Shown here: piece by piece, positions 10,736 to 59,122 of the stretch
Numbering within the stretch: position 1 is the first letter of the stretch
Layout: every line of letters begins with the position of its first letter
Source: an uncultured Bacillota bacterium
GTDB taxonomy: Bacteria; Bacillota_I; Bacilli_A; Erysipelotrichales; Coprobacillaceae
DNA length: 59,590 bases
NCBI GenBank assembly: GCA_949290865.1
Contig: CASETM010000099.1
Location: 1 to 59,590, forward strand
Direction: 5' to 3'
The notes under the pieces: model-generated
Databases searched by the model: none
What the model saw: the letters and a program-made list of their open reading frames with translations, nothing else
Told to the model about the DNA's origin: nothing
Program-made: the position numbers and the translations under genes

Positions 10736-10746
10736 TAATTCACATA

Positions 10747-38658: not shown

Positions 38659-39582
38659 TTACTGTTTTTTATTGATATTTTCAAGCAGATCCATGATTGG
38701 GCAATGGGCAAAGCGTAATGCTTCTTCTCTGATGATCTTAAACTGTGGATTATTACATTTTTCTTTGTGATAGCAAAGCGAAAACATACGATGCCATGAC
38801 CAGTCAGCAAGAGTCAGGACGTGAAGCAGGCCCTGATCGATTTCATTTTGAACAAGGCGGGCAGAGATCAGTGTTAGACCATGATTCATGATGACAGCCT
38901 GTTTGATGCTTGACCAGCTGTGACATTGCCATTCAACGGTGTAGGTGATTTTATGATGATGCATAAAATTATCTAACATTGCTCTTGTTCCGCTGCCTTT
39001 TTCTCTAACGATGAAAGGAAGATGCTGCAGATCGTTGAGCGTAATCACATCATATTGAGAAAGTGGATGTTCTTTTGAACAGACGAGAACGAGCTGATCA
39101 TGAATGATGGGCTCATGGATAATATTGTCGTTATGAATGTCTCCTTCTACAATAGCGATGTCTAATTCGTTTGAAAGCAGTTTTTCTTCGATACTGTGAG
39201 TATTGTCGACATAAACTTGAAAATGCATTTCAGGGTGCTTTTTTTCGATGGTTTTAAGCATTCTTGCAGTTACAGCATTTGCAACGGTCAAGGTTGAACC
39301 GAATTTGATCGTCATCTGGTCATTTTTGTTGAAGAACATATTTTCAATGAAATCAAGTTCGTCTAATATTTTATTGGCATGTTCGAGAAACAGTTTTCCT
39401 TCTGTAGAGATTCCTAAGGTGCGGGAATGACGCTGAAACAGTTTGATATGATAGTAGTTTTCTATTTCCTGTATCTTCTGTGAAATCGTCGGCTGTGAGA
39501 TGTAGAGATTTTCAGCAGCTTTAGACATTGATTTGACACGAGCAACTTCGCGGAAAATAGTAAGGTGTTTGATTGTGATCAT
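38659..39582 (-). CDS. LysR-family transcriptional regulator
   Basis: A 307-residue regulator with an N-terminal winged HTH (about 3-62; SMSKAAENLYISQPTISQKIQEIE) and a C-terminal periplasmic-binding-like effector domain (about 90-295), which carries REKGSGTRAML near 192-202, a CysL/CysB-like ligand loop. It is divergent from hemA; the 112-base spacer holds a LysR-type dyad (39642-39658). It is therefore the likely regulator of the hemACL operon, by arrangement rather than by any direct evidence. The effector is unknown. Confidence 0.9.
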   Translation of the reverse strand: MITIKHLTIFREVARVKSMSKAAENLYISQPTISQKIQEIENYYHIKLFQRHSRTLGISTEGKLFLEHANKILDELDFIENMFFNKNDQMTIKFGSTLTVANAVTARMLKTIEKKHPEMHFQVYVDNTHSIEEKLLSNELDIAIVEGDIHNDNIIHEPIIHDQLVLVCSKEHPLSQYDVITLNDLQHLPFIVREKGSGTRAMLDNFMHHHKITYTVEWQCHSWSSIKQAVIMNHGLTLISARLVQNEIDQGLLHVLTLADWSWHRMFSLCYHKEKCNNPQFKIIREEALRFAHCPIMDLLENINKKQ

Positions 39583-39658: not shown

Positions 39659-39694
39659 TGATAAAATAGATAGAGTTTTAAGGGAGCGATAGTG

Positions 39695-40897
39695 ATGAAA
39701 TTTCTGATGGCTGGAATCAATCATGAAATATTGAATTTGGATGAAAGAAAAGATTTTTATTTTAGAGAAAGCGATAAATATGCTTTTTCAACCTTACTGC
39801 TGGATGAAATGATCGATCAGACCGTAATACTTTCAACCTGCAACAGGAGTGAGGTCTACGTTTTTGTTGATGATGATTTTGCGGATATCGGACTGAAATA
39901 TATTTTCCTGAAATATTTTCATAAAGCTGATACCCCAGTTTATATCAAAAGTGGTGCAGACGCGATATTGTATCTGCTTCAGGTGTCATGTGGATTAAAA
40001 TCGATGGTGATCGGTGAAGATCAGATCCTGCATCAGCTCAAAGAAGCGTATCAATGGTCTTTGCAGCAGCATTTTACTGGCAAAGAGATGAATTTTCTTT
40101 TTCATCAGATCTTAGGGTTTGCTAAAAAAATGAAAAGAGACTATGCCATATCACAGCATCCTTTATCACTTAGCTATATTGGCTATCAGCATATTGTCAA
40201 TGATCTTTTGCCAACGGATAAAGTGATGATATGTGGCAGTGGTGAGATGGCCTCTTTGATGATGGAATATTTAAGTCAGCATGAAATGTATATTGTTAAT
40301 CGAACATTTACCAATGTCAAAAAATATATGAATGAAAAAAGACAGTATGTTCCTTTTGAGGATCGTTATCAGTTTTTAAATCAGGTCAGGCTTGTTGTCA
40401 GTGCAACAGGTTCACCTCATGAAATTTTTAAAGATGAAAAAGTATTTGTCACTCATGATCTGATTTTTTTGGATCTGGCGATGCCTCGTGATGTTGATAT
40501 TCTTCTGGCAAAGCGATTCAAGGTGATCGATATGGATACTTTGCAGTCTTCTTCGAACAGCGAACTAGAAAAAAGAAAAGAAATTGCCTTGCAGATTGAC
40601 AAGGAATGTCAGCTCTTTTTAAATGAACTTCAGGATGGTTTACAGAAAATGAAAAGTGACAGTTTGATTCAAAGAATGCAGGAAAGATACATCGATATTT
40701 CCGAAGAAACATATTCTTTACTTAACAGAAAGCTGGAACTTTCTGCTAAAGAACAGTATATCTTGAAAAAAATATTAAAAACATCATTTTTAAGACTGCT
40801 GAAGGATCCGGTGCGGCTTTTAAAAGAAGGTGATGTTAAACAGCAGGAACAGTACATACAGTTATTAGAAAAAATGATATCGGGAGAAAAATCATGA
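39695..40897 (+). CDS. hemA: Glutamyl-tRNA reductase
   Basis: Reduces glutamyl-tRNA with NADPH to glutamate semialdehyde, the committed step of C5 tetrapyrrole synthesis. The 400-residue protein has the active-site Cys49 in LSTCNRSE, a GEDQIL motif near 108-113, a Rossmann nucleotide domain (KVMICGSGEMASLM near 170-183) and a helical dimerisation tail. ATG 39695 is chosen with AGGGAG at 39681-39686; the ATG-preceding in-frame GTG is too close. Sequence beyond the active site is rather divergent from Bacillus HemA. It overlaps hemC by four bases (ATGA). Confidence 0.93.
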   Translation: MKFLMAGINHEILNLDERKDFYFRESDKYAFSTLLLDEMIDQTVILSTCNRSEVYVFVDDDFADIGLKYIFLKYFHKADTPVYIKSGADAILYLLQVSCGLKSMVIGEDQILHQLKEAYQWSLQQHFTGKEMNFLFHQILGFAKKMKRDYAISQHPLSLSYIGYQHIVNDLLPTDKVMICGSGEMASLMMEYLSQHEMYIVNRTFTNVKKYMNEKRQYVPFEDRYQFLNQVRLVVSATGSPHEIFKDEKVFVTHDLIFLDLAMPRDVDILLAKRFKVIDMDTLQSSSNSELEKRKEIALQIDKECQLFLNELQDGLQKMKSDSLIQRMQERYIDISEETYSLLNRKLELSAKEQYILKKILKTSFLRLLKDPVRLLKEGDVKQQEQYIQLLEKMISGEKS

Positions 40898-41781
40898 GAA
40901 TTGTTATTGGAAGCAGAGGATCAAAACTGGCCCTTGCCCAAAGCGAGGAAGTCAGGCAGGCGCTGTTAAAAACTGATCCAACATTACAGATAGAAATAAA
41001 AGTTATCTCAACGAGGGGAGACCAGATTCTCGATCGACCTTTAGCGATGATTGGGGAAAAAGGACTATTTACACAGGAAATAGAAGCAGGTCTTATCGAT
41101 GGAACAATTGATCTGGCCGTTCATTCGATGAAGGATATGCCAACGGTGATACCCGAAGAATTAATGTTCTGCGGAACAATCAAAGCGAATGATGAAAGAG
41201 ATTGTCTGGTTTTTAATCATCATTATCAAAGTCTTGATGATTTGCCATTAGGTGCAAAAGTCGCGACTGGAAGTTTAAGAAGAAAGTATCAGCTGTTAAA
41301 GATCAGACCTGATTTAAATATCAGTGATATTCGCGGGAATGTCGTTACCCGTTTAGAAAAAATGGTGAATGAAGATTTGGATGCTTTGGTTTTAGCCAGC
41401 GCGGGATTAAAGAGAATCGGTCTGGGAAATAAAATAGGGCATTATTTTGATGTTCGCGATATGATCCCCGCCTGTGCGCAGGGGATTTTGGCGATTGAAG
41501 TTAAAAAGAATTCGAAGCTGCTGGCACTGATCGACAAGATCGTTGATGAAAAGACAACAAAACGTATGAAACTGGAAAGACTGTTTATTGAAACGATCGA
41601 ATGTGGCTGTCACAGTCCAGTTGGTGCTCATGTTGAATTTCAGGATGAGGGAATTGTTTTCGATGCGATTTATGGTAATGAAAATGGTACAAAAATAGAA
41701 AAATATCATGGTCATATATCTGATCATTATGAAGAAAAGATTAGAAATATTGCTTTAATGATGAAAGAAAAAGTTGAATAG
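40894..41781 (+). CDS. hemC: Porphobilinogen deaminase (hydroxymethylbilane synthase)
   Basis: Condenses four porphobilinogen units into hydroxymethylbilane. The 295-residue protein shows IGSRGSKLALAQ at the N terminus, AVHSMKDMPT with the catalytic Asp near 81, SLRRKYQL near 127-134 and IRGNV near 146-150 for substrate binding, and the dipyrromethane cofactor Cys239 in CGCHSPVG. Length is normal. It is coupled to hemA by ATGA overlap and followed 10 bases later by hemL. hemB, whose product supplies its substrate, is not in this cluster. Confidence 0.96.
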   Translation: MRIVIGSRGSKLALAQSEEVRQALLKTDPTLQIEIKVISTRGDQILDRPLAMIGEKGLFTQEIEAGLIDGTIDLAVHSMKDMPTVIPEELMFCGTIKANDERDCLVFNHHYQSLDDLPLGAKVATGSLRRKYQLLKIRPDLNISDIRGNVVTRLEKMVNEDLDALVLASAGLKRIGLGNKIGHYFDVRDMIPACAQGILAIEVKKNSKLLALIDKIVDEKTTKRMKLERLFIETIECGCHSPVGAHVEFQDEGIVFDAIYGNENGTKIEKYHGHISDHYEEKIRNIALMMKEKVE

Positions 41782-41791
41782 GAGACTGTTT

Positions 41792-43087
41792 ATGAATTCA
41801 GATGAATTGTTTAAAAAAGCTTGCCAATATATTCCCGGAGGCGTTAATTCACCAGTGCGTGCCTTTAGAAATGTAGATATGGTTCCTGTTTTTATCAATC
41901 ATGGGAAAAACAGTAAAGTTTATGATGTTGAAGGAAAGGAATATATTGATTATATCGGTTCCTGGGGGCCATTAATTTTAGGACACAGTAATGATGAAAT
42001 CATCAGCAATATAGAACAAGTTTTTCAAAAAGGAACAAGCTTTGGTTTACCAACAGAAAAGGAAATAAAACTGGCAAAAATGATGTGTGATGCTTATCCA
42101 GGAATGGATAAGGTAAGAATGGTCAATTCGGGAACAGAAGCAACGATGTCAGCAATCAGAGTAGCCAGAGGTTATACCGGTAAAGACAAAATTATTAAAT
42201 TTGAAGGTAACTATCACGGGCATTCTGACTGCCTGCTAGTCCAGGCGGGATCGGGAGCGCTGACTTTTCAGGAACCGACAAGTCCAGGAGTGCCTAATGA
42301 TCTGATTAAAAACACTTTGGTTTGCCGTTATAATGATCTGGATGATGTTGTTAAGATGATTGAAAAGAATAAAGGTGAAATTGCCTGTATTATTTTAGAA
42401 CCAATTGCCTGTAATATGGGATTGGTCGAAGGAGAAAGAAGCTTTATCAGAGGATTAAGAGAGCTCTGTGACAAAGAAAATATTATTCTTATTTTTGATG
42501 AAGTTATTTCAGGATTCCGTATTCAATATGACGGAGCGGCCGGCTATTTTGGCGTGGTTCCAGATATGGCGTGTTTTGGTAAAATCATTGGTGGTGGTCT
42601 GCCGGTAGGTGCATATGGAGGGAAAGCTCGACTGATGGATATGGTTTCTCCTTTAGGACCAGTTTATCAGGCGGGAACTTTATCAGGAAATCCTTTGGCA
42701 ATGGAAATGGGAATCAGACAATTGACTTATCTAAAGGATCATCCTGAAGTCTATGTTTATATCAATGAATATGCCAAAAAACTGCAGGAAGGAATGGAGA
42801 AAATCATTGCTGATTATAATTATCCTTGCCATGTGCAAAGATGCGGTAGCCTGTTAACGTTATTCTTTAAAAAAGAGCAGGTCAAAAATTATGATGATCT
42901 CAATAATATTGATCTGCGAGCCTTTACAGCTTATTATCAGGAAATGGTCAGACAGGGAATCATGCTGGCTCCAAGTCAGTTTGAAGGAATATTTATTGGA
43001 TACAAACATAATGATTCTGATTTAAACAAAACGTTGACTGCCTTGGGAATTGCTTTAAAGAAAGCCTTCGGACATGTCAATGATTAA
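41792..43087 (+). CDS. hemL: Glutamate-1-semialdehyde 2,1-aminomutase
   Basis: A PLP-dependent enzyme that makes 5-aminolevulinate from the HemA product. The 431-residue protein has PGGVNSPVRAF near 15-25, the NSGTEATMSAIRVAR segment near 112-126, IFDEVISGFR near 234-243, and PLP-binding Lys264 in CFGKIIGGGLPVGAYGG. ATG 41792 is chosen with AATAGGAGA at 41777-41785; an in-frame TTG at 41774 lies inside hemC. It is the last gene of the hemACL operon, followed by a terminator. Confidence 0.97.
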   Translation: MNSDELFKKACQYIPGGVNSPVRAFRNVDMVPVFINHGKNSKVYDVEGKEYIDYIGSWGPLILGHSNDEIISNIEQVFQKGTSFGLPTEKEIKLAKMMCDAYPGMDKVRMVNSGTEATMSAIRVARGYTGKDKIIKFEGNYHGHSDCLLVQAGSGALTFQEPTSPGVPNDLIKNTLVCRYNDLDDVVKMIEKNKGEIACIILEPIACNMGLVEGERSFIRGLRELCDKENIILIFDEVISGFRIQYDGAAGYFGVVPDMACFGKIIGGGLPVGAYGGKARLMDMVSPLGPVYQAGTLSGNPLAMEMGIRQLTYLKDHPEVYVYINEYAKKLQEGMEKIIADYNYPCHVQRCGSLLTLFFKKEQVKNYDDLNNIDLRAFTAYYQEMVRQGIMLAPSQFEGIFIGYKHNDSDLNKTLTALGIALKKAFGHVND

Positions 43088-43204: not shown

Positions 43205-44497
43205 ATGGATACAAATATGATAACAGATATGCTTTATGTTAAATCGATTTGTCCTCACTATCATGAAAATCTGTTAGAGATTATTGTTGTATTAAAAGGA
43301 ACGATTACGATTCACAAATTGGATCGGACTGAGATTGTTTCTGAAGGACAGTTTGTAATGGTTAATAAGAACATTACACATTGGATTGAAAGTAAAGGTG
43401 CATATATACTGGTTACCAAGATAAAGTTAGATAGATTCAAACATATCTATGACAAAATTGAATATGTAGAATTCTATTATCTCAAAGAGAGTGTTGATCG
43501 AGATCTTAGAGAAAGACTTAATGCTATTATTATTGACTGTGTTGTCAAAAATTTTGTTTATCAGGTATTTCGGATTGACCAGATGGACAGTTTTTTAAAT
43601 GACAATCAGCTGATGTCTACCTTATATTCTTTTTATCGTTTGAACAGTTTCAGAAAAATCGATGATGAATATGTTTCTAATGAACTATTGGATAGATATT
43701 ACTATGTCGTAGAATTTGTTAATAAACATGTTCATGAAAAAGTTATTGTTGATGATATTCTCAAACATGTTTATATGAATTCGACATATTTTTCACAGTT
43801 TATGAAAAAAATAGGAGGATTAGGATTTAAAGAGTTTGTTTCTTATGTGAAATTTAGCAAAGTAGTTCAGTATTTGATTGGAGAAGAACTGACAATGACG
43901 GAGATTGCAGCGAAAGTCGGTATGACAGATATGAAGTCATTTTATAATTCATTTAAAAGATATTTTCGTATATCGCCTTCTAAATGGCGTAAATCAATAT
44001 CTTATATGAAAAATGATTATATACAGTGTTTTGATGATCAGATTTTTAAAACTTTTTTACATGAATACAATATTGTTAATCATCATATCAATACCATCAC
44101 TAGAGCGTATAAGCGATTGTTGAAATATCAGATGGATAAAATGAATCTTAAAGGAACAAATATGAAAATAGAGCCTTTTGCTGATATGAGGGATTATAAT
44201 CAAAAACACTATCAGGTCTATAAAAATTTTTCTTTACTGATCAGAAAAGCAGATGAGCTAGGAGTGAAAATAGAATTTATTGTTCCTGTTCGTTTTTTAA
44301 AACGAAATGGTCAGGAAAATCTGTTAAGATGTCTACTTTTAGAAAATACCCGAATCTATAGTCCTCAGGATCTGAAAAAATGGTCTATTTCACTATTGGT
44401 TAATGGGAAAGAAGAATTAAATAAAGCAAAAAAAATTCAAAAATCATTATATGAGATTTCTAAAAACTTTATAATAAATATTGATATAAACTATTAA
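43205..44497 (+). CDS. AraC-family regulator with long C-terminal extension
   Basis: A 430-residue regulator. The N-terminal cupin-like sensor (about 15-85; HYHENLLEIIVVLKGTITIH) is followed by a helical linker and the AraC double HTH at about 170-265 (ending MTEIAAKVGMTDMKSFYNSF and RISPSKWRK). Unusually a further 165 residues follow, with no family I can name but resembling the partial GH39-like barrel seen in other gut Firmicutes AraC proteins. It is 130 bases upstream of the SLC13-trx-assT operon in the same direction, and is its likely activator by position. RBS AATAGGTGA precedes ATG 43205. Confidence 0.88.
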   Translation: MDTNMITDMLYVKSICPHYHENLLEIIVVLKGTITIHKLDRTEIVSEGQFVMVNKNITHWIESKGAYILVTKIKLDRFKHIYDKIEYVEFYYLKESVDRDLRERLNAIIIDCVVKNFVYQVFRIDQMDSFLNDNQLMSTLYSFYRLNSFRKIDDEYVSNELLDRYYYVVEFVNKHVHEKVIVDDILKHVYMNSTYFSQFMKKIGGLGFKEFVSYVKFSKVVQYLIGEELTMTEIAAKVGMTDMKSFYNSFKRYFRISPSKWRKSISYMKNDYIQCFDDQIFKTFLHEYNIVNHHINTITRAYKRLLKYQMDKMNLKGTNMKIEPFADMRDYNQKHYQVYKNFSLLIRKADELGVKIEFIVPVRFLKRNGQENLLRCLLLENTRIYSPQDLKKWSISLLVNGKEELNKAKKIQKSLYEISKNFIINIDINY

Positions 44498-44557: not shown

Positions 44558-44571
44558 TTAAAGCGCTTACA
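44558..44571. promoter_or_regulatory. CcpA (cre)-like site at the sulfotransferase operon promoter
   Basis: TTAAAGCGCTTACA matches the cre consensus TGWAANCGNTNWCA at all but the second position. A TATAAT (44579-44584) follows 7 bases later, so the site covers the -35/spacer region. Carbon catabolite repression is expected by family knowledge, not shown. Confidence 0.6.
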
Positions 44572-44628: not shown

Positions 44629-46128
44629 ATGGAAAAGAAAAGCATGAAAACTCTAATCCATTTTCTGATTGGCTTCGCCATTATGATTGGATTTAGGTTT
44701 ATTCCAATAGGCGTGTTACCTGAAGTAACTGCGGTTGGAATGCAGGTACTAGGTGTTTTTATTGGAACAATCTATTTATGGACAACAGTTGATCCAATTT
44801 TAGGATCAATTGCATCAATGGTCATGTTAGGATTTACAGATTGGGCGTCAATGAACTATGTTCTACTTCAAGGTTTTGGAAACGCAGTTCTTGTTCAATG
44901 TTTATTTCTGATGATCATTATGGGTGGTTTAACTGACAGAAAAATCAATGCCTATATTGCCCGTTTTATTTTAACAAGAAAAATGATTGAAGGAAAACCT
45001 TGGATCTTTACCGGTGCGATTGTTTATGGAAGTTATTTAATGTCAGTATTTGTTGGGTGTTTTGCGCCAATTTTCTTGTTTTGGCCAGTTTTAACATCGG
45101 TTTATGAGGATGTAGGATTTAAGAAAACAGATTTATATCCTAAATTGATGACAATTATGGTTGTTATGGCTGCTTTGATCGGATTCCCAGTGCCACCTTA
45201 CATGGGAAATGGTTTAGCATTAATTGGTTTCTGGCAAGGCATCGCAGGAAATGCTATACAAAACGGAGCTAATCTTGTAGGTGCTACAATCAATACAGGT
45301 ACATATTTTGTTAGCCTTTTGATTTTAGGAGCTGTTTTATTACTTGCTTTGATTCTGTTGATGAAATTTGTCTTCAAGCCAGATGTGAAACCATTACAAA
45401 TGGTAAGTACAGAAATGTTAAATAAGAATCCATTACCACCAATGGATTTTTCACAGAAAACTTATTCAATTGTTTATGTGTTTATGATTTTATGTATGTT
45501 GCTTCCTACATTGATTTCAGGAGTACCATTTTTAGAATTTATTCAGACGAATACATATGGTATCGGTTTGGTTATTACTGTTATCTTATTAGTTATTAGA
45601 CATAATGGTGAACCATTATTAAGATTTAATCCAGTTATGTCAACAAAAATTAACTGGGGTACATATTTTATCATTGCAGCAGCTTTAATCATTGGTACGG
45701 CATTAACTTCTTCACCTATTGAAGGAACGACACAGGCAACAGGTATTACAGAATTTTTAAATGCTGTTTTATCACCTATTTTTTCTGGTATGTCAGGTAC
45801 AATTTTTACAGTGGTTATTCTATTGACAGCTGTAGTATTGACAAATATTTGTAATTCATTGGTTATTGGTATGATTCTGCAGCCAGTTATCTTATCATAT
45901 TGTGCTAATTCTGGAGCAGCTGCTGCACCAATTATCACATTATTGATTTTCACGGTTTTATTGACAGCGGCTATTACTCCAGCTGCATCACCATTTGCGG
46001 CAATGATGTTTGGTAATAAAGAGTTTTTAACAAATGGTGACATCTATAAATACTGTTCAATCATGGTTGTTTTGGAATTAGTGATTATCGTAGTTGTAGG
46101 TATTCCATTTATTAGTATTTTAATGTAA
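44629..46128 (+). CDS. SLC13/DASS-family anion permease
   Basis: A 499-residue membrane protein with about 12 helices and the SLC13 (divalent anion:Na+ symporter) arrangement: two similar halves, re-entrant segments around 165-195 and 410-440, and the ITPAASPFAAMMFG motif near 442-455. Substrates in the family are dicarboxylates, citrate or sulfate. AGGAATGAGGG lies just upstream as the ribosome binding site. It heads an apparent operon with thioredoxin reductase, thioredoxin and two sulfotransferases, so a sulfate, sulfate ester or linked anion is the reasonable guess, but this is inference. Confidence 0.88.
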   Translation: MEKKSMKTLIHFLIGFAIMIGFRFIPIGVLPEVTAVGMQVLGVFIGTIYLWTTVDPILGSIASMVMLGFTDWASMNYVLLQGFGNAVLVQCLFLMIIMGGLTDRKINAYIARFILTRKMIEGKPWIFTGAIVYGSYLMSVFVGCFAPIFLFWPVLTSVYEDVGFKKTDLYPKLMTIMVVMAALIGFPVPPYMGNGLALIGFWQGIAGNAIQNGANLVGATINTGTYFVSLLILGAVLLLALILLMKFVFKPDVKPLQMVSTEMLNKNPLPPMDFSQKTYSIVYVFMILCMLLPTLISGVPFLEFIQTNTYGIGLVITVILLVIRHNGEPLLRFNPVMSTKINWGTYFIIAAALIIGTALTSSPIEGTTQATGITEFLNAVLSPIFSGMSGTIFTVVILLTAVVLTNICNSLVIGMILQPVILSYCANSGAAAAPIITLLIFTVLLTAAITPAASPFAAMMFGNKEFLTNGDIYKYCSIMVVLELVIIVVVGIPFISILM

Positions 46129-46206
46129 GGAAGTATACTATCTTTTTGGGTTGTTAATTACTTATTGAGAGTATAAAATAAAAGTAATGAGAGGGAGGTC
46201 TCTTTA

Positions 46207-47121
46207 ATGAACCAATATGATTTAGTGATTATCGGGTCTGGTCCAGCAGGAATGACTGCTGCTATTTATGGAGCTAGAGCTGATTTGAAAGTTTTAATGT
46301 TAGATAAATTGGCACCAGGTGGACAAATTATTAATACTAATGAAATTCAAAATTATACTGGTGTTGGAACGATCAATGGTGCTGAACTGGCAATGAATAT
46401 GTTTACGCATACACAGGAATTAAATGTCGAATTTGATTATGGAACCGTCTGCTCAATCGAAGCAGAAGGTGATGTGAAGAAGATTCACATTGAAGAAGAT
46501 CCTGATAAGATTATCGAATGTAAAGCAGTGATTATTGCAACAGGAACAACTAACAGAAAACTAAATATTGAAAAAGAAGAACAGTTTATTGGAAATGGGA
46601 TTAGTTTCTGTGCAATCTGTGATGGCGCATTTTATACAGGAAAAGATGTTGTTGTCATTGGTGGGGGGAATTCTGCAGTAGAAGAATCTATTTATTTGGC
46701 AAGTATGGTAAAATCATTAACTATTGTTACGATGTTTGATTTGACTGCGGATCCAATTGCTTGTGACAAATTACGTTCACTTGATAATGTTAAAGTTTAT
46801 CCATATCAGGATGTACTAGAATTTTTAGGAGATTCTTCATTAGAAGGGATTCATTTTAAATCGACAAAGACAGGTGAAGAAACAATATTAAAATGTGATG
46901 GTGTCTTTGAATATATAGGATTATTACCAGTGACTGATTTTGTTAAGGATCTTGGTATTACAAATGATTATGGTTATATTGAAGTCAACGAAAAAATGGA
47001 AACAAAGATACCAGGAATCTATGGTGCTGGAGACTGTATTACAAAGAATCTAAGACAAGTAATAACAGCTTGTGCTGATGGTGCTATAGCAGCTCAAGAA
47101 GCATCACGTTACATTAAATAG
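46207..47121 (+). CDS. Thioredoxin reductase-like flavoprotein
   Basis: A 304-residue FAD enzyme with the low-Mr thioredoxin reductase fold: FAD motif IIGSGPAGMTAA near 8-19, redox CAIC near 135-138, GGGNSAVEE for the second nucleotide near 151-159, and FAD-binding GIYGAGDC near 271-278. The HRRxxxR signature that binds the NADPH 2'-phosphate is replaced by TMFDLTA near 176-182, so NADPH use is doubtful; NADH or ferredoxin are options. GAGGGAGG sets ATG 46207. The adjacent thioredoxin, 12 bases on, is the obvious partner. Confidence 0.92.
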   Translation: MNQYDLVIIGSGPAGMTAAIYGARADLKVLMLDKLAPGGQIINTNEIQNYTGVGTINGAELAMNMFTHTQELNVEFDYGTVCSIEAEGDVKKIHIEEDPDKIIECKAVIIATGTTNRKLNIEKEEQFIGNGISFCAICDGAFYTGKDVVVIGGGNSAVEESIYLASMVKSLTIVTMFDLTADPIACDKLRSLDNVKVYPYQDVLEFLGDSSLEGIHFKSTKTGEETILKCDGVFEYIGLLPVTDFVKDLGITNDYGYIEVNEKMETKIPGIYGAGDCITKNLRQVITACADGAIAAQEASRYIK

Positions 47122-47133
47122 GAGGGTATAAGG

Positions 47134-47445
47134 ATGTTAAAAGAAATTGAAAGTACTGAATTCGAAGAATTAACTTCTACTGGTGTAGCAGTTGTAGATT
47201 TTTTCTCTACGACTTGTGGACCATGTAAAATGTTATCGTTTGTATTAAACGATGTTGAAAAAGCGATAGGAGATAAAGTCAAAATCTTAAAAGTTGATTT
47301 TGACAAAAATAAAGATTTAACTGCTCAGTATGCTGTTAAAGGATATCCAACTTTAATTTTCATGAAAGATGGTGCTGAAGTAAAAAGAATGCAAGGATTA
47401 CAACAAAAACCAGCAATCATCAAAGCTATTGAAGAATTACTATAG
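47134..47445 (+). CDS. Thioredoxin
   Basis: A 103-residue thioredoxin with the classical CGPC active site near 31-34, though the preceding tryptophan is replaced (FFSTTCGPCK). The cis-proline motif GYPTLIFMKDG is intact. There is no signal peptide, so it is cytoplasmic. Ribosome binding site TAGGAGGG at 47120-47127. It forms a reductase-thioredoxin pair immediately upstream of the sulfotransferases, with a hairpin in between that may lower or separate expression. Confidence 0.93.
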   Translation: MLKEIESTEFEELTSTGVAVVDFFSTTCGPCKMLSFVLNDVEKAIGDKVKILKVDFDKNKDLTAQYAVKGYPTLIFMKDGAEVKRMQGLQQKPAIIKAIEELL

Positions 47446-47455
47446 TTTTAAAGAT

Positions 47456-47485
47456 AAGCTGTGCTTTGTCCACAGCTTTCTTTTA
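47456..47485 (+). terminator. Hairpin between trx and the first sulfotransferase gene
   Basis: AAGCTGTG (47456-47463) pairs with CACAGCTT (47471-47478), followed by TCTTTT. It could be a partial terminator or an mRNA processing or stability element within the operon. Confidence 0.55.
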
Positions 47486-47514
47486 AATAAAATAAAAGAA
47501 AAGGAGAAGTAAAA

Positions 47515-49383
47515 ATGGCTGAAAAAATTAATTATTTATCAATTGAACATTTGATTCCAAGACAGGCTAAAGCTGAAAAAGCAATGCTGGAAGAATTTGA
47601 AAATGGAAATTACACAATTGATAACCCATTAGTTAAATATAATGTATATTTAATTAATCCATTATCTGCTGTTGTTTTATTCAACACAGAACAAGAAGTT
47701 GCGGTGACTGTAAGAGTATTAGGAAAAACAAAAGAAGCAACAATTACACATACTTTCCCAAAGGCAAAGAAACATATTTTACCAATTGTTGGTTTATATT
47801 CTGATTACTCTAATAAAGTAGAAATTGAACTTTACAGAGGTAAAAAGACAACTGTTACTATTGATACACCAGATGTATTTAATGGTGAAAAAGTTGTTAA
47901 TTATATGAAAACAACTGCTGAATATCTTGAAGATAATATTATCATTGTTTCACCTGCAGGAGAAAAACTTTCAACAGGTTTTGATTATGCTGGTGATGCA
48001 AGATGGCATATGAATGTACCAACTGTATTTGATTTGAAACGTTTAAAAAATGGAAATTTATTATGTGGAACTGAAAGATTATTAAAGTTATCTTATTACA
48101 TGTCAGGTCTTTATGAAATGTCTATGGTAGGAAAAATCTATAAAGAATATCGTATTCCTGGTGGATATCATCATGACCAGTTTGAAATGCCAGATGGAAA
48201 TCTACTTGTTCTTACTGAAGATTTAAGAACTGATACAGTTGAAGACATGTGTGTCCTAATCAATAGAGAAACTGGTGAAGTGATGAAAACCTGGGATTAT
48301 AAGAAATTCCTAGATCCTAATAAAGTTGGAAAATCAGGAAGTTGGACAGATGAAGACTGGTTCCATAACAATGCGGTGTGGTATGATGAAAATACAAATT
48401 CATTAACTTTCTCAGGACGACATATTGATGGTATGGTCAATATTGATTTTGATTCAGGTGAATTGAATTGGATTATCGGGGATCCAGAAGGATGGGATGA
48501 ATCATATCAGAAATATTTCTTTAAACCAATTGGTAATAACTTTGAATGGCAGTATGAACAGCATGCAAACCTGATTACTCCTAATGGTGATGTTATGTGT
48601 TTTGATAACCACCATTATGGTTCAAAAAACCCAGATAAATTTGCTAAAGCTGAAAACAGCTATTCAAGAGGTGTTAGATATCATATCAATACAGATGATA
48701 TGACAATTGAACAGGTTTGGCAGTATGGTAAAGGAAGAGGAGCAGAATTTTTCTCACCATATATCTGTAACGTAGAATATTATAATGAAGGACATTATAT
48801 GGTTCATTCAGGTGGTATTGCTTATGATAAAGATGGAAATCCTTCAGAAGCCTTAGGACCATTTGCAGCCCAAGCAGGAGGATCACTGACTTCAACAACA
48901 GTTGAAATCTGCAACGATATTGTGCAGTTGGAATTAAGTGTACCAGGTAATTATTACCGTGCTGAAAAACTGAAAATGTATGTACCAGGAACAAATCTGG
49001 AATTAGGAGAAGGAAAGATTTTAGGTCATCTTAATGAAACAAGAGAAATGGAAACTGAAGTTCCAGCAGAAGCTTGTGGTGAATATTTGCCAGAATTCTG
49101 TGAAGCAAGAATTGAAGATGAATTTGACAGATTTACATTCTATTCAAGATTTGTTAAAGGTGATTTAGTATTATTACAGTTAGAAAAAGGCGACGAAGTA
49201 CATAGATACTTTATTTCTACAACATCTCGCCCTGCAACAGCAATGTGTTGTGGTACTTTCTTGGATACTGATGACAGAAACACACGTACTTGTATCACAA
49301 AAACAGGATTATCAGGTACATATGATGTAAGAGTTATCATTAATGACAAGAAATACGAAACTGGTGTACAGATTGAATGTTAA
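47515..49383 (+). CDS. Arylsulfate sulfotransferase (first)
   Basis: A 622-residue PAPS-independent sulfotransferase that moves sulfate from an aryl sulfate to another phenol. It has an N-terminal beta domain (Arylsulfotran_N, about 30-120) and a six-bladed propeller. Conserved candidate catalytic residues: His219/His220 (GGYHHDQFEMPDGN), His284 (DWFHNNAV), His350 with Asn352 (EQHANLITPNGD), Arg385 or Arg388 (SRGVRY) and His431 (YMVHSGG), the likely sulfo-acceptor. There is no signal peptide, unlike the periplasmic E. coli enzyme. AAGGAGAAG at 47500-47508 sets the start. The next gene, 12 bases on, is its paralogue. Confidence 0.93.
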   Translation: MAEKINYLSIEHLIPRQAKAEKAMLEEFENGNYTIDNPLVKYNVYLINPLSAVVLFNTEQEVAVTVRVLGKTKEATITHTFPKAKKHILPIVGLYSDYSNKVEIELYRGKKTTVTIDTPDVFNGEKVVNYMKTTAEYLEDNIIIVSPAGEKLSTGFDYAGDARWHMNVPTVFDLKRLKNGNLLCGTERLLKLSYYMSGLYEMSMVGKIYKEYRIPGGYHHDQFEMPDGNLLVLTEDLRTDTVEDMCVLINRETGEVMKTWDYKKFLDPNKVGKSGSWTDEDWFHNNAVWYDENTNSLTFSGRHIDGMVNIDFDSGELNWIIGDPEGWDESYQKYFFKPIGNNFEWQYEQHANLITPNGDVMCFDNHHYGSKNPDKFAKAENSYSRGVRYHINTDDMTIEQVWQYGKGRGAEFFSPYICNVEYYNEGHYMVHSGGIAYDKDGNPSEALGPFAAQAGGSLTSTTVEICNDIVQLELSVPGNYYRAEKLKMYVPGTNLELGEGKILGHLNETREMETEVPAEACGEYLPEFCEARIEDEFDRFTFYSRFVKGDLVLLQLEKGDEVHRYFISTTSRPATAMCCGTFLDTDDRNTRTCITKTGLSGTYDVRVIINDKKYETGVQIEC

Positions 49384-49395
49384 GGAGGAAAATAA

Positions 49396-51261
49396 ATGGC
49401 AATAGATTATAGTTTTACAAAGAGCATTGTTGATCGCCAAAATGAAGCTGAAAAAGCAATGTTGGATGAATTTAAAAATGGAAATTATACTTTGAATAAT
49501 CCTTTGGTAAAATTAAATCCATATTTTATAAATCCTTTAGCAGCTGTTATCTGTTTTCATACTGATGAAGAAGTTGCGGTAACGATCAGAGTATTGGGAA
49601 AAGAGCCTGAAGGAACGATGGCTCATACTTTCCCGAAAGCAAAAGACCATGTTTTACCTGTTTTGGGATTATATGGTGACTATGAAAATAAAGTTGAAAT
49701 TGAACTTTACAGAGGAGCAAAAAATACGATCACGATTCAGACTGAACCTTTACCAGAAGATGTACCAGAGCTGGTTCATATGAAGACAACTTATAAATAT
49801 CTTCGTGATGAATTGATTTTTGTATCACCTGCACTAACTGATTTGGCGACAGGATTTGACTATAAAGGAGATGTCAGATGGCATATCAATATTCCAACAG
49901 TATTTGACATCAAACGTGCTAAAAATGGGAATATTTTGATTGGAACACACCGTCTTTTGAAAATTCCTTACTATATGTCTGGTATTTACGAAATGACAAT
50001 GGTTGGTAAGATTGTTAAAGAATATACGATTCCTGGTGGATATCACCATGACCAGTTTGAAATGCCGGATGGAAATCTGTTGATCTTAACTGAAGATCTA
50101 ACATCAGATACAGTTGAAGATATGTGTGTTTTGGTTGACAGAAATACCGGAGAAATTCTTAAAACTTGGGATTACAAAGATTTTCTGGATCCTAAAAAGA
50201 CAGCTGGAAGTGGCAGCCAGACAGATGAAGACTGGTTCCATAATAATGCCGTATGGTATGACGAAAATACGAATTCGTTGACTTTCTCAGGTCGTCATAT
50301 CGATGCAATGTGCAATATTGATTATGATACTGGCAAGTTAAACTGGATCATTGGTGATCCTGAAATGTGGCCAGAAGAATATCAGAAATATTTCTTTAAA
50401 CCAGTTGGTGATGGAGAATTTGACTGGCAGTATGAACAACATGCAAACCTGATTACACCTGATGGGGATGTTATGTGTTTTGATAATGGACATTTCCGTT
50501 CTAAAGTACCTGAAAAACGTATTTTGAATAAGGATAATTTCTCAAGAGGTGTTCGTTATAAAATTAATACTGACGATATGACAATTCAGCAGGTATGGCA
50601 ATATGGTAAAGAAAGAGGACAGGAATTCTTCTCACAATATATCTGTAATGTTGAATACTATAAAGAAGGACACTATATGGTTCACTCTGGTGGTATTCAG
50701 TACTATGGTGATGATGCCTCTGAACAGTTTGCTGCACTGATGCAGGATGATCCAAATGTCAGAACATATTCTACGACTGTAGAAGTGCTGGATGATGAAG
50801 TAATGTTAGAATTAAAAGTAAAAGGTAATTTCTATCGTGCTGAAAAACTTCATTTATACCATGACCAGGATAATCTGCCATTAGGAGATGGTATCCGTTT
50901 AGGACATATGGGTGTGACAAAAGAATTTGACACAATTATCCCAGCTGAATCAGCAAATGAACAGATTTCTCACATCTATGAAGCTTCTATTGAAGAAGAA
51001 GATGACAGATTCACTTTTAATGCTACTTTTGAATCAGGGCAGCTGGTTATGTTAATGCTAGAACAGGGGGATGAACAGCATGGTTACTTCATCTCAACAG
51101 CAAAAAATCAGTTTGCTGCATTATGTTGTGGAACATTCATTCAAAAAGACGCTAGAAAAGTATCATGTTCAGTGAATAAATATGGTTTAAAAGGAACTTA
51201 TGATATTCGTGTTATCGTAGATGATAAGAAATACGAAACAGGAATTCAAATTAAATGTTAA
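49396..51261 (+). CDS. Arylsulfate sulfotransferase (second)
   Basis: A 621-residue paralogue of the preceding enzyme, colinear over its full length. Candidate catalytic residues are kept: His217/His218, His282 (DWFHNNAV), His349 (EQHANLITPDGD), and His430 (YMVHSGG). No signal peptide or transmembrane segment is visible, so it too is cytoplasmic. TAAGGAGGA at 49381-49389 sets the start. The two differ most in the region after residue 440 and in the C-terminal third, which may give different acceptor or donor range. A terminator follows. The duplication may be old, as DNA identity is clearly partial. Confidence 0.93.
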   Translation: MAIDYSFTKSIVDRQNEAEKAMLDEFKNGNYTLNNPLVKLNPYFINPLAAVICFHTDEEVAVTIRVLGKEPEGTMAHTFPKAKDHVLPVLGLYGDYENKVEIELYRGAKNTITIQTEPLPEDVPELVHMKTTYKYLRDELIFVSPALTDLATGFDYKGDVRWHINIPTVFDIKRAKNGNILIGTHRLLKIPYYMSGIYEMTMVGKIVKEYTIPGGYHHDQFEMPDGNLLILTEDLTSDTVEDMCVLVDRNTGEILKTWDYKDFLDPKKTAGSGSQTDEDWFHNNAVWYDENTNSLTFSGRHIDAMCNIDYDTGKLNWIIGDPEMWPEEYQKYFFKPVGDGEFDWQYEQHANLITPDGDVMCFDNGHFRSKVPEKRILNKDNFSRGVRYKINTDDMTIQQVWQYGKERGQEFFSQYICNVEYYKEGHYMVHSGGIQYYGDDASEQFAALMQDDPNVRTYSTTVEVLDDEVMLELKVKGNFYRAEKLHLYHDQDNLPLGDGIRLGHMGVTKEFDTIIPAESANEQISHIYEASIEEEDDRFTFNATFESGQLVMLMLEQGDEQHGYFISTAKNQFAALCCGTFIQKDARKVSCSVNKYGLKGTYDIRVIVDDKKYETGIQIKC

Positions 51262-51380: not shown

Positions 51381-52088
51381 ATGCAAGACTATATTAGAAT
51401 CAAATCTAAATACAATCCAGATTTGGAATTGAAAGTTATTCCTGGACATTTTGCCAGTGACAGATTCCATGTAAATTATTATATTGAAATGTCATCATTA
51501 AAAATGAGACAAACTGATGCTAAAATGGTAGCACATGCCATGGCAGACCGATATATTGAAAAACTGGATATTGATGATAAAGTATTAGGACTGATTAATC
51601 CATCGGTTGTAGATATCGCAATTTCAGCTCAAAAAATTGATACGATTGTGTGTATGGATGGATGTGAAGTTATTGGCGCATATCTGGCTGATGAATTGAC
51701 TCGCGTTGGTGTACAGACAACGAATAAACATGGATGTTTTTATGTTATCACACCAGAATTTGATAACACTGGACAAATGGTTGTTAGAAACAATATTAAA
51801 AAAATGATCAATGGAAAAAATGTTCTGGTTGTTTTGGCCAGCGCGATGTCAGGACGTACAATTTCTAAAGCAATTGGAACAATCAAAGCTTATAATGGTA
51901 AGATTGCTGGACTGTCAGTTATTTTTGGTAATATTGATGAAATTGAAGGGCATAAGATCTATAAAGTCTTTAGCACGGAAGATTTGCCTGATTTTAAATT
52001 GTCATCACCTACTGACTGTGAAGCATGCAAAAAAGGAATCAAGCTGGATGCAGTAGTCAATTCTTATGGATATGAAGAATTAAAATAA
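51381..52088 (+). CDS. Orotate phosphoribosyltransferase-like protein
   Basis: A 235-residue protein with a PRTase-type fold: an acidic loop-like DGCEVIGAYLADEL near 93-106, and the PRPP-loop position VLVVLASAMSGRTISKAIG at about 148-166. In ordinary OPRTases this loop starts with two acids (VDDxxxTG); here it reads LASAMSGRT, so the usual Mg-PRPP acidic pair is missing. A C-terminal CEACKKG pair could bind zinc. It may be a PRTase relative with a changed substrate or a binding protein. It stands alone between two terminators after the sulfotransferase operon. GGGTGAAAG is the ribosome binding site. Confidence 0.72.
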   Translation: MQDYIRIKSKYNPDLELKVIPGHFASDRFHVNYYIEMSSLKMRQTDAKMVAHAMADRYIEKLDIDDKVLGLINPSVVDIAISAQKIDTIVCMDGCEVIGAYLADELTRVGVQTTNKHGCFYVITPEFDNTGQMVVRNNIKKMINGKNVLVVLASAMSGRTISKAIGTIKAYNGKIAGLSVIFGNIDEIEGHKIYKVFSTEDLPDFKLSSPTDCEACKKGIKLDAVVNSYGYEELK

Positions 52089-52629: not shown

Positions 52630-52969
52630 CGAGTTCACCTTCTTCACCTGTTATCTCAATAATAAGCTTATGAGGCAGGCAAATAATACTGGCTCCAGCT
52701 TTTGAAATGTGACCTTGTTGAATACAGGTTTTATCAGGACATGTTGCCTGATCCATATAGACTTCATAATTTTTAATAATGATGATATTTTCATCATTGA
52801 TATTGATGGTCTGATCATGATTGAGATCGTATATACCATATAATTCACGATCGATCGTAATTTTTACATGATATCCTGGATTACTTTTCTGAAATAAAAA
52901 TAAACAAACAATAACAACAATGACTGTTATTATGATGATCAGATCATATTTTAAAGTTTTTTTCATCAT
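52613..52969 (-). CDS. NusG domain II-containing membrane-anchored protein
   Basis: A 118-residue protein with one N-terminal membrane helix (about 5-27) and an outside beta domain of the NusG_II type ending with the cysteine motif CPDKTCIQQGHISKAGASIICL (residues 75-96, here quoted in parts: CPDKTC and IICLPHKL). It is not NusG itself. Start ATG 52969 with GGAGA on the minus strand. It shares a divergent 40-base promoter region with apbE and is coupled to the Gx transporter. The conserved neighbourhood suggests a role near extracytoplasmic flavinylation or redox, not established. Confidence 0.87.
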   Translation of the reverse strand: MMKKTLKYDLIIIITVIVVIVCLFLFQKSNPGYHVKITIDRELYGIYDLNHDQTININDENIIIIKNYEVYMDQATCPDKTCIQQGHISKAGASIICLPHKLIIEITGEEGELDDKTY

Positions 52970-53009
52970 TGAAATTCTCCGTGTTATAATGATCAGTAGG
53001 AGGCATACC

Positions 53010-53987
53010 ATGAAAAAAATAATAATTTTGATGATTATATATGCATTTATGCTGGGAGGATGTGACAATAGCTCACAGCCACTTACAGATAAACAGTTCT
53101 GTTTAGATACGATTGTCCAGATTTCATTGTATGATTCTTACTCTAGTGATATTTTAAATCACTGCTTTGATATTTGCAATGAGTTTGAGCTCATCTTTTC
53201 CTCAACAGATGAAAACAGTGAACTGTATAAAATCAATCACAGTCAGTACAAACTGGAAAGTCAGTCCATCTCTGATGATCTTTATCAAGTCATCAGTGAA
53301 GGCCTTTATTATAGTCAGCTGTCGAATGGTCAATTTGATATAACGATCGGTGCCGTTTCATCCTTGTGGAATTTTCAAAGTGACACGCCTCAGTTGCCTG
53401 ATCAGCAGCAGCTTCGGGAAAAACTGAAAACCGTTTCATATAAAAATATTGAGCTGGAAAAAAACAGCATTCGATATCTTAATGAGGAAACTATGATTGA
53501 TCTTGGCGGGATAGCGAAAGGTTATATTGCTGATAAAATTAAAGAATATCTGTTGGAGCAGGATGTTGGCAGTGCTCTTATTAATCTGGGTGGAAATGTA
53601 CTTTGTGTAGGAGATAAGAATGATGAGGATTTTGTGATTGGATTGACCGATCCAACAGCGACCAGCAATTCTCTTTTGAGCTTAAACATAGCTGATCTTT
53701 CAGTTGTTACAAGCGGAACATATCAGCGCTATTTTGAAATAGAAGGGAAGCGATATCATCATATTCTTGATCCACAGACAGGTTACAGTTATGATAATGG
53801 ACTAGCCGCAGTTACGATTGTTAGTTCTTCATCCATTCAGGGTGATGCTTTAAGTACGATCTGCTTTGCCTTAGGGAAAGATGAAGGAATAAAGCTTTTG
53901 GATTCACTTAAGGGTGTCTATGGCTGTTTTGTTGATAATGATAATCATATCAGCTATTCTCAAGGATTTAAACAGTTTATCAAATAA
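53010..53987 (+). CDS. apbE: FAD:protein FMN transferase (lipoprotein)
   Basis: Attaches FMN covalently to a threonine of client flavoproteins, notably RnfG and RnfD. The 325-residue protein starts with a lipoprotein signal ending in LGGC (Cys at about residue 19), so it is anchored outside the membrane. The core motif IDLGGIAKGYIADK near 165-178 and HHILDPQTGYS near 248-258 are ApbE hallmarks. AGTAGGAGG at 52995-53003 sets ATG 53010. A TATAAT at 52985-52990 is its likely -10. It faces the rnf operon tail to tail, sharing a terminator, so its clients are next door. Confidence 0.95.
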   Translation: MKKIIILMIIYAFMLGGCDNSSQPLTDKQFCLDTIVQISLYDSYSSDILNHCFDICNEFELIFSSTDENSELYKINHSQYKLESQSISDDLYQVISEGLYYSQLSNGQFDITIGAVSSLWNFQSDTPQLPDQQQLREKLKTVSYKNIELEKNSIRYLNEETMIDLGGIAKGYIADKIKEYLLEQDVGSALINLGGNVLCVGDKNDEDFVIGLTDPTATSNSLLSLNIADLSVVTSGTYQRYFEIEGKRYHHILDPQTGYSYDNGLAAVTIVSSSSIQGDALSTICFALGKDEGIKLLDSLKGVYGCFVDNDNHISYSQGFKQFIK

Positions 53988-54017
53988 AAAGATCTTCTAT
54001 GATGGAAGATCTTTATT
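53988..54017. terminator. Bidirectional terminator between apbE and rnfB
   Basis: AAAGATCTTC and GAAGATCTTT form a hairpin around a 7-nt loop (53998-54004), with A and T tracts outside. It overlaps the last codons of rnfB. Confidence 0.82.
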
Positions 54018-54798
54018 CTATGATTTTTCGTGGACATTTTTCAACACAGGCACCACAGTTCGTGCATTTCGCATAATCAATATGGGCCAGAAAATCCTTA
54101 ACAGTGATTGCTTTTGCCTCACAGACCTTAGTACATAAAGTACAGCCAATACATCCTTCATCACAGGCTTTCGTAACCTTTGGACCTTTATCATGCGAGT
54201 TGCACTGAACACGGTGCAATGAGTGATAAGGAACCATTTCAATAAGATGATTCGGACATACATCGATACATTTCTGACAGGCTTTACAGTTTTCTTTATT
54301 TACAACAGCGACACCATCAACAATATGAATGGCATCAAAAGGACAGACATTGACACAACTGCCATATCCCATACATCCATAGCTGCATTTTTTATCCCCA
54401 GAGCCAGGAACGACGGATGCGCTCAAACAATCCTGAATCCCATAATAATGATATTGTGTTTTAACTTTATCACATGTTCCTTTGCATTTGACATAGGCAG
54501 TCATACGCACGCTTTCCTGGGCTTCTTCTCCCATAACTGCTCCAATTAAAGAGGCAACCTCCATTCCGCCAACAGGACATTGATTGACAGGTGCTTCTTT
54601 TTTGGCAATAGCTGCAGCCAGTCCATCGCAGCCAGGATAGCCACAGGCACCACAGTTGTTTCCAGGCAGAAGAGCTCTGATTTTTTCTTCATTTTCATCA
54701 ACTTTTATTTTAAACTTTTCACTGGCCACACCAAGTACAAGACCAATGACCAAACCAATAATACCGACGACCAGGGCGGCAATCATTATTCCATTCAT
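54013..54798 (-). CDS. rnfB: Rnf complex subunit B (Fe-S)
   Basis: The 261-residue electron-entry subunit that takes electrons from ferredoxin. An N-terminal membrane helix (about 4-27) is followed by CGACGYPGC near 50-58 (the ASKHA-like Fe-S motif, with CPVGG), an extra cysteine-rich part, and C-terminal ferredoxin motifs CSYGCMGYGSCVNVCP, CKACQKCIDVCP, CDEGCIGCTLCTKVCE and CTNCGACVEKCP. That is more clusters than the short proteobacterial RnfB, as is usual in Firmicutes. It is the last gene of rnfCDGEAB. All cysteine motifs look complete. Confidence 0.96.
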   Translation of the reverse strand: MNGIMIAALVVGIIGLVIGLVLGVASEKFKIKVDENEEKIRALLPGNNCGACGYPGCDGLAAAIAKKEAPVNQCPVGGMEVASLIGAVMGEEAQESVRMTAYVKCKGTCDKVKTQYHYYGIQDCLSASVVPGSGDKKCSYGCMGYGSCVNVCPFDAIHIVDGVAVVNKENCKACQKCIDVCPNHLIEMVPYHSLHRVQCNSHDKGPKVTKACDEGCIGCTLCTKVCEAKAITVKDFLAHIDYAKCTNCGACVEKCPRKIIE

Positions 54799-54810
54799 AA
54801 CATTTCCTCC

Positions 54811-55383: not shown

Positions 55384-55385
55384 AA

Positions 55386-56087: not shown

Positions 56088-56092
56088 GCTGT

Positions 56093-57638: not shown

Positions 57639-57647
57639 ACGAACCTC

Positions 57648-58964: not shown

Positions 58965-59010
58965 AAATTTCAACTCCTTCCTATTAATTTTACATGAACG
59001 CAGTAGAAAA

Positions 59011-59024
59011 TGAAAGCCTTTACA
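59011..59024. promoter_or_regulatory. cre-like site upstream of the rnf operon
   Basis: TGAAAGCCTTTACA matches TGWAANCGNTNWCA except at position 8. On the other strand it also matches with one mismatch. It lies in the rnf leader and could repress or activate, depending on the start site, which I cannot place. Confidence 0.45.
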
Positions 59025-59122
59025 GCAAGTTAAAAAATTAACAATTTCATCAACAAAAAAAAAGAAATTTGTCTCCTTATGTAAACGAAGAAACGAATAA
59101 GACATAAATAGTCAGGAAAACA

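What the first reader, a model, noticed from the sequence alone, without database searches (positions are those of the whole stretch)
44629..51261. Arylsulfate sulfotransferase operon with a dedicated thioredoxin pair and an SLC13 permease
Two signal-peptide-less ASST paralogues follow an anion permease, a thioredoxin reductase-like protein and a thioredoxin, under an AraC regulator and a cre-like site. In E. coli the periplasmic AssT is linked to oxidising DsbL/DsbI; here the enzymes seem cytoplasmic and linked to a reducing system. This could be a sulfate-ester handling system of gut bacteria that imports a sulfated compound, moves the sulfate between phenols and is tied to redox state.
Basis: partly seen in the sequence, partly recalled or inferred. 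Interest (0 to 1): 0.75.

Follow-up and report, generated by a model that had tools for sequence, protein, structure and literature searches.

The report
Sulfate esters turned into sulfite
A gut bacterium carries a conserved gene cassette that pairs a sulfate-ester enzyme with its own private thioredoxin, and its repeated linkage to sulfite-reducing genes suggests that it turns sulfated compounds into sulfite and then hydrogen sulfide without spending ATP, a route found in none of the papers searched here.

Summary
The trio TrxB-TrxA-ASST recurs in 50 of 69 ASST loci from gut Clostridia, Peptoniphilaceae, Desulfosporosinus and Desulfobulbaceae. The TrxA is private: in 43 family genomes, scores above 170 bits occur only inside the cassette (8 genomes); all others score 96 or less. 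In Lachnospiraceae-type loci the next genes are anaerobic sulfite reductase AsrABC plus siroheme genes. In the window's own family all 9 ASST genomes have AsrC (7 of 34 others do), and the window's hemA-hemC-hemL, part of the Asr operon in relatives, sit directly upstream. None of 30 such genomes has ATP sulfurylase, so Asr needs sulfite from elsewhere. I infer that ASST passes the sulfuryl group to a thiol (TrxA or an invariant cysteine) and that the dithiol releases sulfite, as in APS/PAPS reductase. That chemistry is untested: the cysteine also occurs in membrane-anchored relatives without Trx neighbours, and assayed relatives sulfate phenols and alcohols in vitro.

The parts
38659..39582 (-). 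LysR regulator; 46-51% identical relatives sit beside the asr operon in other genomes of the family
39692..40897 (+). hemA, glutamyl-tRNA reductase (siroheme precursor path); inside the asr operon in relatives
40894..41781 (+). hemC, hydroxymethylbilane synthase
41774..43087 (+). hemL, glutamate-1-semialdehyde aminomutase
43205..44497 (+). AraC-type regulator (cupin + HTH_18); kept beside the cassette in several genera
44558..44571 (+). cre-like palindrome TTAAAGCGCTTACA, one mismatch to the cre consensus; same place in the closest relative only
44629..46128 (+). SLC13/DASS-type anion permease, candidate importer of the sulfate ester
46207..47121 (+). TrxB, thioredoxin reductase-like (CAIC kept; HRRxxxR NADPH motif missing)
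47134..47445 (+). TrxA, private thioredoxin: TCGPC in place of WCGPC, invariant Arg85 and Lys92
47456..47478 (+). hairpin with T-rich tail between trxA and ASST1 (possible attenuator or processing site)
47515..49383 (+). ASST1: catalytic H220, H284, R302, H350; C-terminal Ig/FN3-like domain with invariant Cys578
49396..51261 (+). ASST2, tandem paralogue, 65% identical to ASST1, same catalytic set and cysteine
51381..52088 (+). PRTase-like protein of the cassette; weak PF00156 match, degenerate PRPP loop, four invariant Cys (91, 95, 213, 216)

Best explanation
The cassette is an ATP-free entry from sulfate esters into sulfite reduction. The permease imports an organic sulfate (inferred). Cytoplasmic ASST takes the sulfuryl group onto its histidine (the family's chemistry, known from E. 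coli AssT; residues present here). In place of a phenol, the physiological acceptor is a thiol: either the private TrxA directly, or the invariant Cys578 of ASST, giving an S-sulfonate. The dithiol of TrxA then releases sulfite and is re-reduced by TrxB. AsrABC with siroheme (DsrAB in sulfate reducers) reduces the sulfite to sulfide. Shown: gene content, recurrence, private TrxA, association with sulfite reductases, absence of sulfate activation. Inferred: transport, thiol acceptor, sulfite as product, substrate identity. It would work like APS/PAPS reductase with thioredoxin, with an ester-derived sulfo-histidine in place of APS/PAPS.
For: TrxB and TrxA both linked in 50/69 loci, TrxA-ASST gap mostly 3-182 bp; loci were chosen by ASST alone. 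Linkage also in other gene orders: ASST-TrxB-TrxA (L104), and a divergent CHVC Trx plus TrxB downstream of ASST in Desulfosporosinus (L097, L099, L107). Private TrxA: >170 bits only in 8 cassettes, next best 96. AsrA/B/C above NCBIfam cut-offs, within 9 kb of 18/50 Trx-linked and 0/19 unlinked loci (Fisher 0.0015); L052 reads permease-TrxB-TrxA-ASST-AsrA-AsrB-AsrC. Family: AsrC in 9/9 ASST genomes, 7/34 others, p 2e-5; in the window's genus the two with ASST have Asr and the four without lack it. Lachnospiraceae: 9/10 vs 41/289, p 5e-7. No ATP sulfurylase in 30/30; no PAPS-reductase-family protein in the window's genome. DsrA in 9/9 sulfate-reducer-type genomes that lack AsrC. Window hemA/C/L and LysR belong to the asr operon in relatives. 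Cys578 invariant in 100/100. The disulfide-bearing loop of E. coli AssT is missing here.
Against: No sulfite release by any ASST is reported in the papers found. Relatives DsAST and HefAST sulfate phenols and alcohols from pNPS in vitro (PMC13426309). The Cys578 equivalent also occurs in membrane-anchored relatives without Trx or Asr neighbours, so it does not mark the Trx-linked type. 19/69 loci lack a nearby Trx pair of this type. Five of 38 ASST genomes show neither AsrC nor DsrA, though some are incomplete drafts. Co-occurrence is not corrected for phylogeny. The thermodynamics of reducing an aryl sulfate with a thioredoxin were only considered roughly and may need pull from Asr.
Confidence: 0.55

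Rival explanations
1. One reading: ASST moves sulfate between phenols (detoxification or signalling) and the Trx pair only keeps ASST cysteines reduced or tunes its activity.
For: Known in vitro activity of close relatives with pNPS and many phenol or alcohol acceptors (PMC13426309). Several conserved cysteines.
Against: Does not explain AsrABC, siroheme genes, DsrA association or lack of sulfate activation. A private thioredoxin just to keep a cytoplasmic enzyme reduced is unusual: the genome has another thioredoxin.
Confidence: 0.22
2. ASST hands the sulfuryl group to a nucleotide (AMP or PAP), making APS or PAPS without ATP, and a Trx-dependent reductase elsewhere makes sulfite.
For: Would also need thioredoxin and feed Asr or Dsr. 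Plausible in sulfate reducers, which have APS reductase (own knowledge).
Against: No PAPS/APS-reductase-family protein (PF01507) in the window's genome or most tested relatives. AprAB was not searched.
Confidence: 0.08
3. Small thiols (cysteine, CoA, sulfide) are the acceptors; Trx then reduces the S-sulfo product or thiosulfate to give sulfite.
For: Same genomic evidence; only the acceptor differs. The in vitro acceptor range of relatives is broad (PMC13426309).
Against: TrxA is highly conserved, private and adjacent, which fits direct contact better.
Confidence: 0.1
4. Coincidental grouping: separate anaerobic sulfur and redox genes cluster in a sulfur island without one pathway.
For: Sulfur genes often cluster. 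Some ASST loci lack Trx, and five genomes lack both AsrC and DsrA.
Against: Gene order and the TrxA subfamily are kept across families and a second phylum with changed flanks.
Confidence: 0.05

Closest known systems
PAPS-independent arylsulfate sulfotransferase, 'cluster II' type (D. hafniense DhAST, Desulfosporosinus HMP52 DsAST, Hungatella effluvii HefAST)
   Same: Same family; catalytic residues kept; the genomes of two studied organisms (H. effluvii, Desulfosporosinus HMP52) are among the loci here. Homologues with 628 residues are 51-53% identical to ASST1.
   Different: Reported as phenol or alcohol sulfating enzymes with unknown natural acceptor (PMC13426309). The link to a private thioredoxin and sulfite reductase is not mentioned there (0 hits for thioredoxin and sulfite).
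E. coli AssT with DsbL/DsbI
   Same: Same Pfam family, propeller fold (Z 34.9 over 429 residues) and catalytic residues; a thiol-redox partner nearby.
   Different: AssT is periplasmic with a disulfide made by an oxidising pair; here cytoplasmic, disulfide loop missing, extra C-terminal Ig-like domain, reducing partner.
APS/PAPS reductase with thioredoxin
   Same: Proposed chemistry: thiol takes a sulfuryl group, thioredoxin releases sulfite.
   Different: No sequence relationship; no nucleotide; donor would be sulfo-histidine from an ester.
Anaerobic sulfite reductase AsrABC
   Same: Same genes, adjacent in Lachnospiraceae-type loci; present elsewhere in the window's genome (G000:C80).
   Different: Not in the window; a lower-scoring AsrC subtype (about 350-400 bits, 345-400 aa) accompanies most ASST genomes.

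Membership tests
Arylsulfotransferase PF05935 | Pfam match over cut-off | tested here: met
   358 bits vs 24, both paralogues
Arylsulfotransferase PF05935 | Catalytic His/His/Arg/His of AssT | tested here: met
   alignment to 3elq; invariant in 100/100 relatives
Arylsulfotransferase PF05935 | Propeller fold of AssT | tested here: met
   AF2 model pLDDT 92; 3ets Z 34.9, rmsd 2.8, 429 aligned
Arylsulfotransferase PF05935 | Sulfuryl transfer from aryl sulfate | not testable with these tools
   shown in the literature for relatives DsAST and HefAST (PMC13426309)
AssT-DsbL/DsbI system | Export signal, disulfide loop, oxidising Dsb partner | tested here: not met
   no signal peptide in 100/100; cysteine-bearing insert of AssT aligns to a gap; partner is Trx/TrxR
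Thioredoxin | PF00085, CGPC, cis-Pro | tested here: met
   87 bits vs 23.5; CGPC and PT invariant in 40/40. Below NCBIfam equivalog cut-off
Thioredoxin reductase | FAD/NAD domains and redox CxxC | tested here: met
   Pyr_redox_2 160 bits, CAIC 41/41; equivalog model 325 vs 343 bits, just missed
Thioredoxin reductase | HRRxxxR NADPH motif | tested here: not met
   TMFDLTADP in its place in nearly all 41; electron donor may be NADH
SLC13/DASS permease | Na_sulph_symp or CitMHS over cut-off | tested here: inconclusive
   window protein 25 vs 32 bits; homologue L029 71 vs 27 bits
AsrABC sulfite reductase | TIGR02910/02911/02912 over cut-off | tested here: met
   in linked loci 434/337/374 bits; own genome AsrC 371 bits. 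Not in the window
APS/PAPS reductase | PF01507 protein in the genome | tested here: not met
   none in G000; claim is 'works like', not 'is a'
APS/PAPS reductase (mechanism) | S-sulfo-cysteine intermediate released by thioredoxin | not testable with these tools
   candidate thiols: TrxA Cys28/31 and ASST Cys578

The most novel reading that the evidence does not exclude
A previously undescribed dissimilatory route: ATP-independent, thioredoxin-driven reductive desulfation of organic sulfate esters to sulfite by a cytoplasmic ASST branch, feeding AsrABC or DsrAB, spread over Bacillota and Desulfobacterota. It would supply the missing natural acceptor of cluster II ASTs and a direct path from phenol sulfates to gut hydrogen sulfide.
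Probability: 0.5. Interest if true: 0.9.

Novelty: new variant of a known kind. Interest (0 to 1): 0.78.

Why it matters
A 2026 review says the natural sulfuryl acceptors and roles of most bacterial ASTs are unknown (PMC13426309). Genomes here offer a testable answer: a thiol. If true, host and dietary phenol sulfates, steroid sulfates or drug sulfates become direct electron acceptors and sulfide sources for gut Clostridia that cannot activate sulfate, and AsrABC gains a dedicated sulfite supplier.

Tried and rejected
Distance of Cys578 to the catalytic His350: the model's coordinates are not released, and the loop 571-580 has pLDDT about 64, so not measured. Cys578 as a mark of Trx linkage: rejected, since unlinked and membrane-anchored homologues keep it. 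C-terminal domain function from fold: only Ig/FN3-like sandwiches at Z below 8, uninformative. PRTase-like protein against PDB: no usable match. Permease against PDB: none. DhAST Val579Asp (a change that raises sugar sulfation, PMC13426309) lies in or near the Cys loop by homologue numbering (Cys at 576-584), but the DhAST sequence itself was not identified, so it is only suggestive. One alignment contained a junk row (A1) and another a wrong short row (A5); neither was used. Papers: eight searches found none that join ASST, thioredoxin and sulfite reductase; the library lacks most subscription journals and preprints.

Full report
OBSERVATION. Pfam gives PF05935 at 358 bits for both ASSTs. E. 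coli AssT (3elq) is the best solved relative; its catalytic histidines and arginine align with His220, His284, Arg302 and His350, and the cysteine-bearing insert of AssT aligns to a gap. Neither ASST has a signal peptide. A further gene, a PRTase-like protein at 51381-52088, follows and belongs to the cassette in most relatives.

THE GENOME. The window is a 59590-base contig of a 2.33 Mb genome. The closest named relative found is [Clostridium] spiroforme An567 (L031, 94% identical ASST1). A third ASST in this genome (G000:C60) is membrane-anchored and lacks the C-terminal domain.

RECURRENCE. In 43 genomes of the family, 9 carry the ASST cassette. In seven neighbourhoods with enough sequence the order permease-TrxB-TrxA-ASST-ASST is kept (in one of them only one, shortened, ASST frame is seen), mostly with the PRTase-like gene, and with changed flanks. 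A scan of 84,980 species genomes with the ASST alignment gave 79 loci. In 69 of them with at least 1.6 kb upstream, 50 have both TrxB and TrxA on the same strand within 9 kb, mostly 3-182 bp from ASST. They include Lachnospiraceae, Peptoniphilaceae, Desulfosporosinus and Desulfobulbaceae. Order can differ: ASST-TrxB-TrxA in L104, and a second, divergent Trx (CHVC) plus TrxB downstream of ASST in Desulfosporosinus. The loci were chosen by ASST only, so the neighbours are not a selection effect.

A PRIVATE THIOREDOXIN. A profile of cassette TrxA scores 173-181 bits in 8 family genomes, each time inside the cassette, and at most 96 bits anywhere else in the 43 genomes; the window's genome has another thioredoxin at 92 bits. 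The ninth ASST genome has its ASST at a contig edge. Cassette TrxA replaces the tryptophan before CGPC by threonine in 39 of 40 and keeps Arg85 and Lys92 in all. TrxB keeps CAIC but lacks the HRRxxxR motif of NADPH-dependent enzymes.

LINK TO SULFITE REDUCTION. The genes after ASST in many Lachnospiraceae-type loci are AsrA, AsrB and AsrC, each over the NCBIfam cut-off, followed by hemA and other tetrapyrrole genes. Asr lies within 9 kb of 18 of 50 Trx-linked loci and of none of 19 unlinked ones (Fisher 0.0015). In Diplocloster agilis the order is permease-TrxB-TrxA-ASST-AsrA-AsrB-AsrC. In the window's family, AsrC is over the cut-off in 16 of 43 genomes and in all 9 with ASST (p 2e-5); within the genus, the two genomes with ASST have it and the four without do not. 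The window's own asrABC lies on another contig with cobA/hemD, hemB and a siroheme dehydrogenase-like gene. In relatives, LysR, asrABC, hemA, hemC, cobA/hemD, hemB, hemL and that gene form one cluster; in the window, LysR, hemA, hemC and hemL lie just upstream of the ASST cassette. In 299 Lachnospiraceae-family genomes AsrC occurs in 9 of 10 with ASST and 41 of 289 without (p 5e-7; the centre genome was chosen because it has ASST). These tests are not corrected for phylogeny.

NO SULFATE ACTIVATION. None of 30 ASST-bearing genomes, nearly all with Asr, has ATP sulfurylase PF01747, with working controls, and the window's genome has no PF01507 protein. So its Asr cannot live on sulfate by the known path and needs sulfite from elsewhere. 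Of 38 ASST genomes checked, 24 have AsrC over the cut-off and 9 others have DsrA; five have neither. Two of those five carry, directly after ASST, a PF03601 membrane protein, a family often annotated as sulfate exporter (own knowledge).

MECHANISM. E. coli AssT forms a sulfo-histidine (reviewed in PMC13426309). Thioredoxin-dependent APS/PAPS reductase makes an S-sulfo-cysteine and releases sulfite (own knowledge). Putting a sulfo-histidine enzyme beside a private dithiol and its reductase, next to a sulfite reductase, in genomes without sulfate activation, suggests the reaction ester + dithiol -> alcohol + sulfite + disulfide. The acceptor thiol could be TrxA itself or Cys578 of ASST, invariant in 100 of 100, in a C-terminal Ig-like domain that AssT lacks, on a loop that the AF2 model leaves uncertain (pLDDT about 64). 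Against Cys578 as specific to the Trx type: membrane-anchored relatives without Trx or Asr neighbours keep it too. The steps transport, thiol acceptor and sulfite are inferred.

KNOWN. Cluster II ASTs such as DsAST (Desulfosporosinus HMP52, genome of L107) and HefAST (Hungatella effluvii, genome of L032, L064 and L086) sulfate phenols, alcohols and sugars from pNPS in vitro, and their natural acceptors are unknown (PMC13426309). A survey of asrABC in gut genomes does not mention sulfate esters or arylsulfate enzymes as a source (PMC9016944). No paper found joins ASST, thioredoxin and sulfite reductase. The library is incomplete.

VERDICT. The pathway is probable but the central reaction has not been shown.

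Noticed in passing
51381-52088: PRTase-like protein recurs near ASST in 24 of 69 loci; its PRPP loop lacks the usual acidic pair (VVLASAMSG) and Cys91, Cys95, Cys213 and Cys216 are invariant in 23 of 23. Function unknown.
   Followed up: partly
54013-59105: A complete rnfCDGEAB cluster lies downstream on the other strand, with an ApbE-like gene at 52920-53987; possible source of NADH or reduced ferredoxin for sulfite reduction.
   Followed up: partly
L028:11246-12856: A third ASST of the same genome is membrane-anchored and lacks the C-terminal cysteine domain, so two ASST types coexist.
   Followed up: partly
L127-L142 and one search list: AsrC falls into two score groups: about 345-390 bits (mostly in ASST genomes) and 455-570 bits (classical). 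They may be separate subfamilies.
   Followed up: partly
L097:12095-13679: Desulfosporosinus ASST is followed by a divergent thioredoxin with CHVC and a TrxB-like protein, a second kind of Trx partner.
   Followed up: partly
L074:12082-13092: PF03601 membrane protein directly after ASST in two genomes without AsrC or DsrA; candidate sulfite or sulfate exporter.
   Followed up: no
3887-5242: ISL3-family transposase on the - strand.
   Followed up: no
2535-2640 and 10745-10950: SAM riboswitch upstream of S-adenosylmethionine synthetase and a T-box leader upstream of leucyl-tRNA synthetase-like gene.
   Followed up: no
47456-47478: Hairpin with T-rich tail between trxA and ASST1; may set different levels of Trx and ASST.
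   Followed up: no
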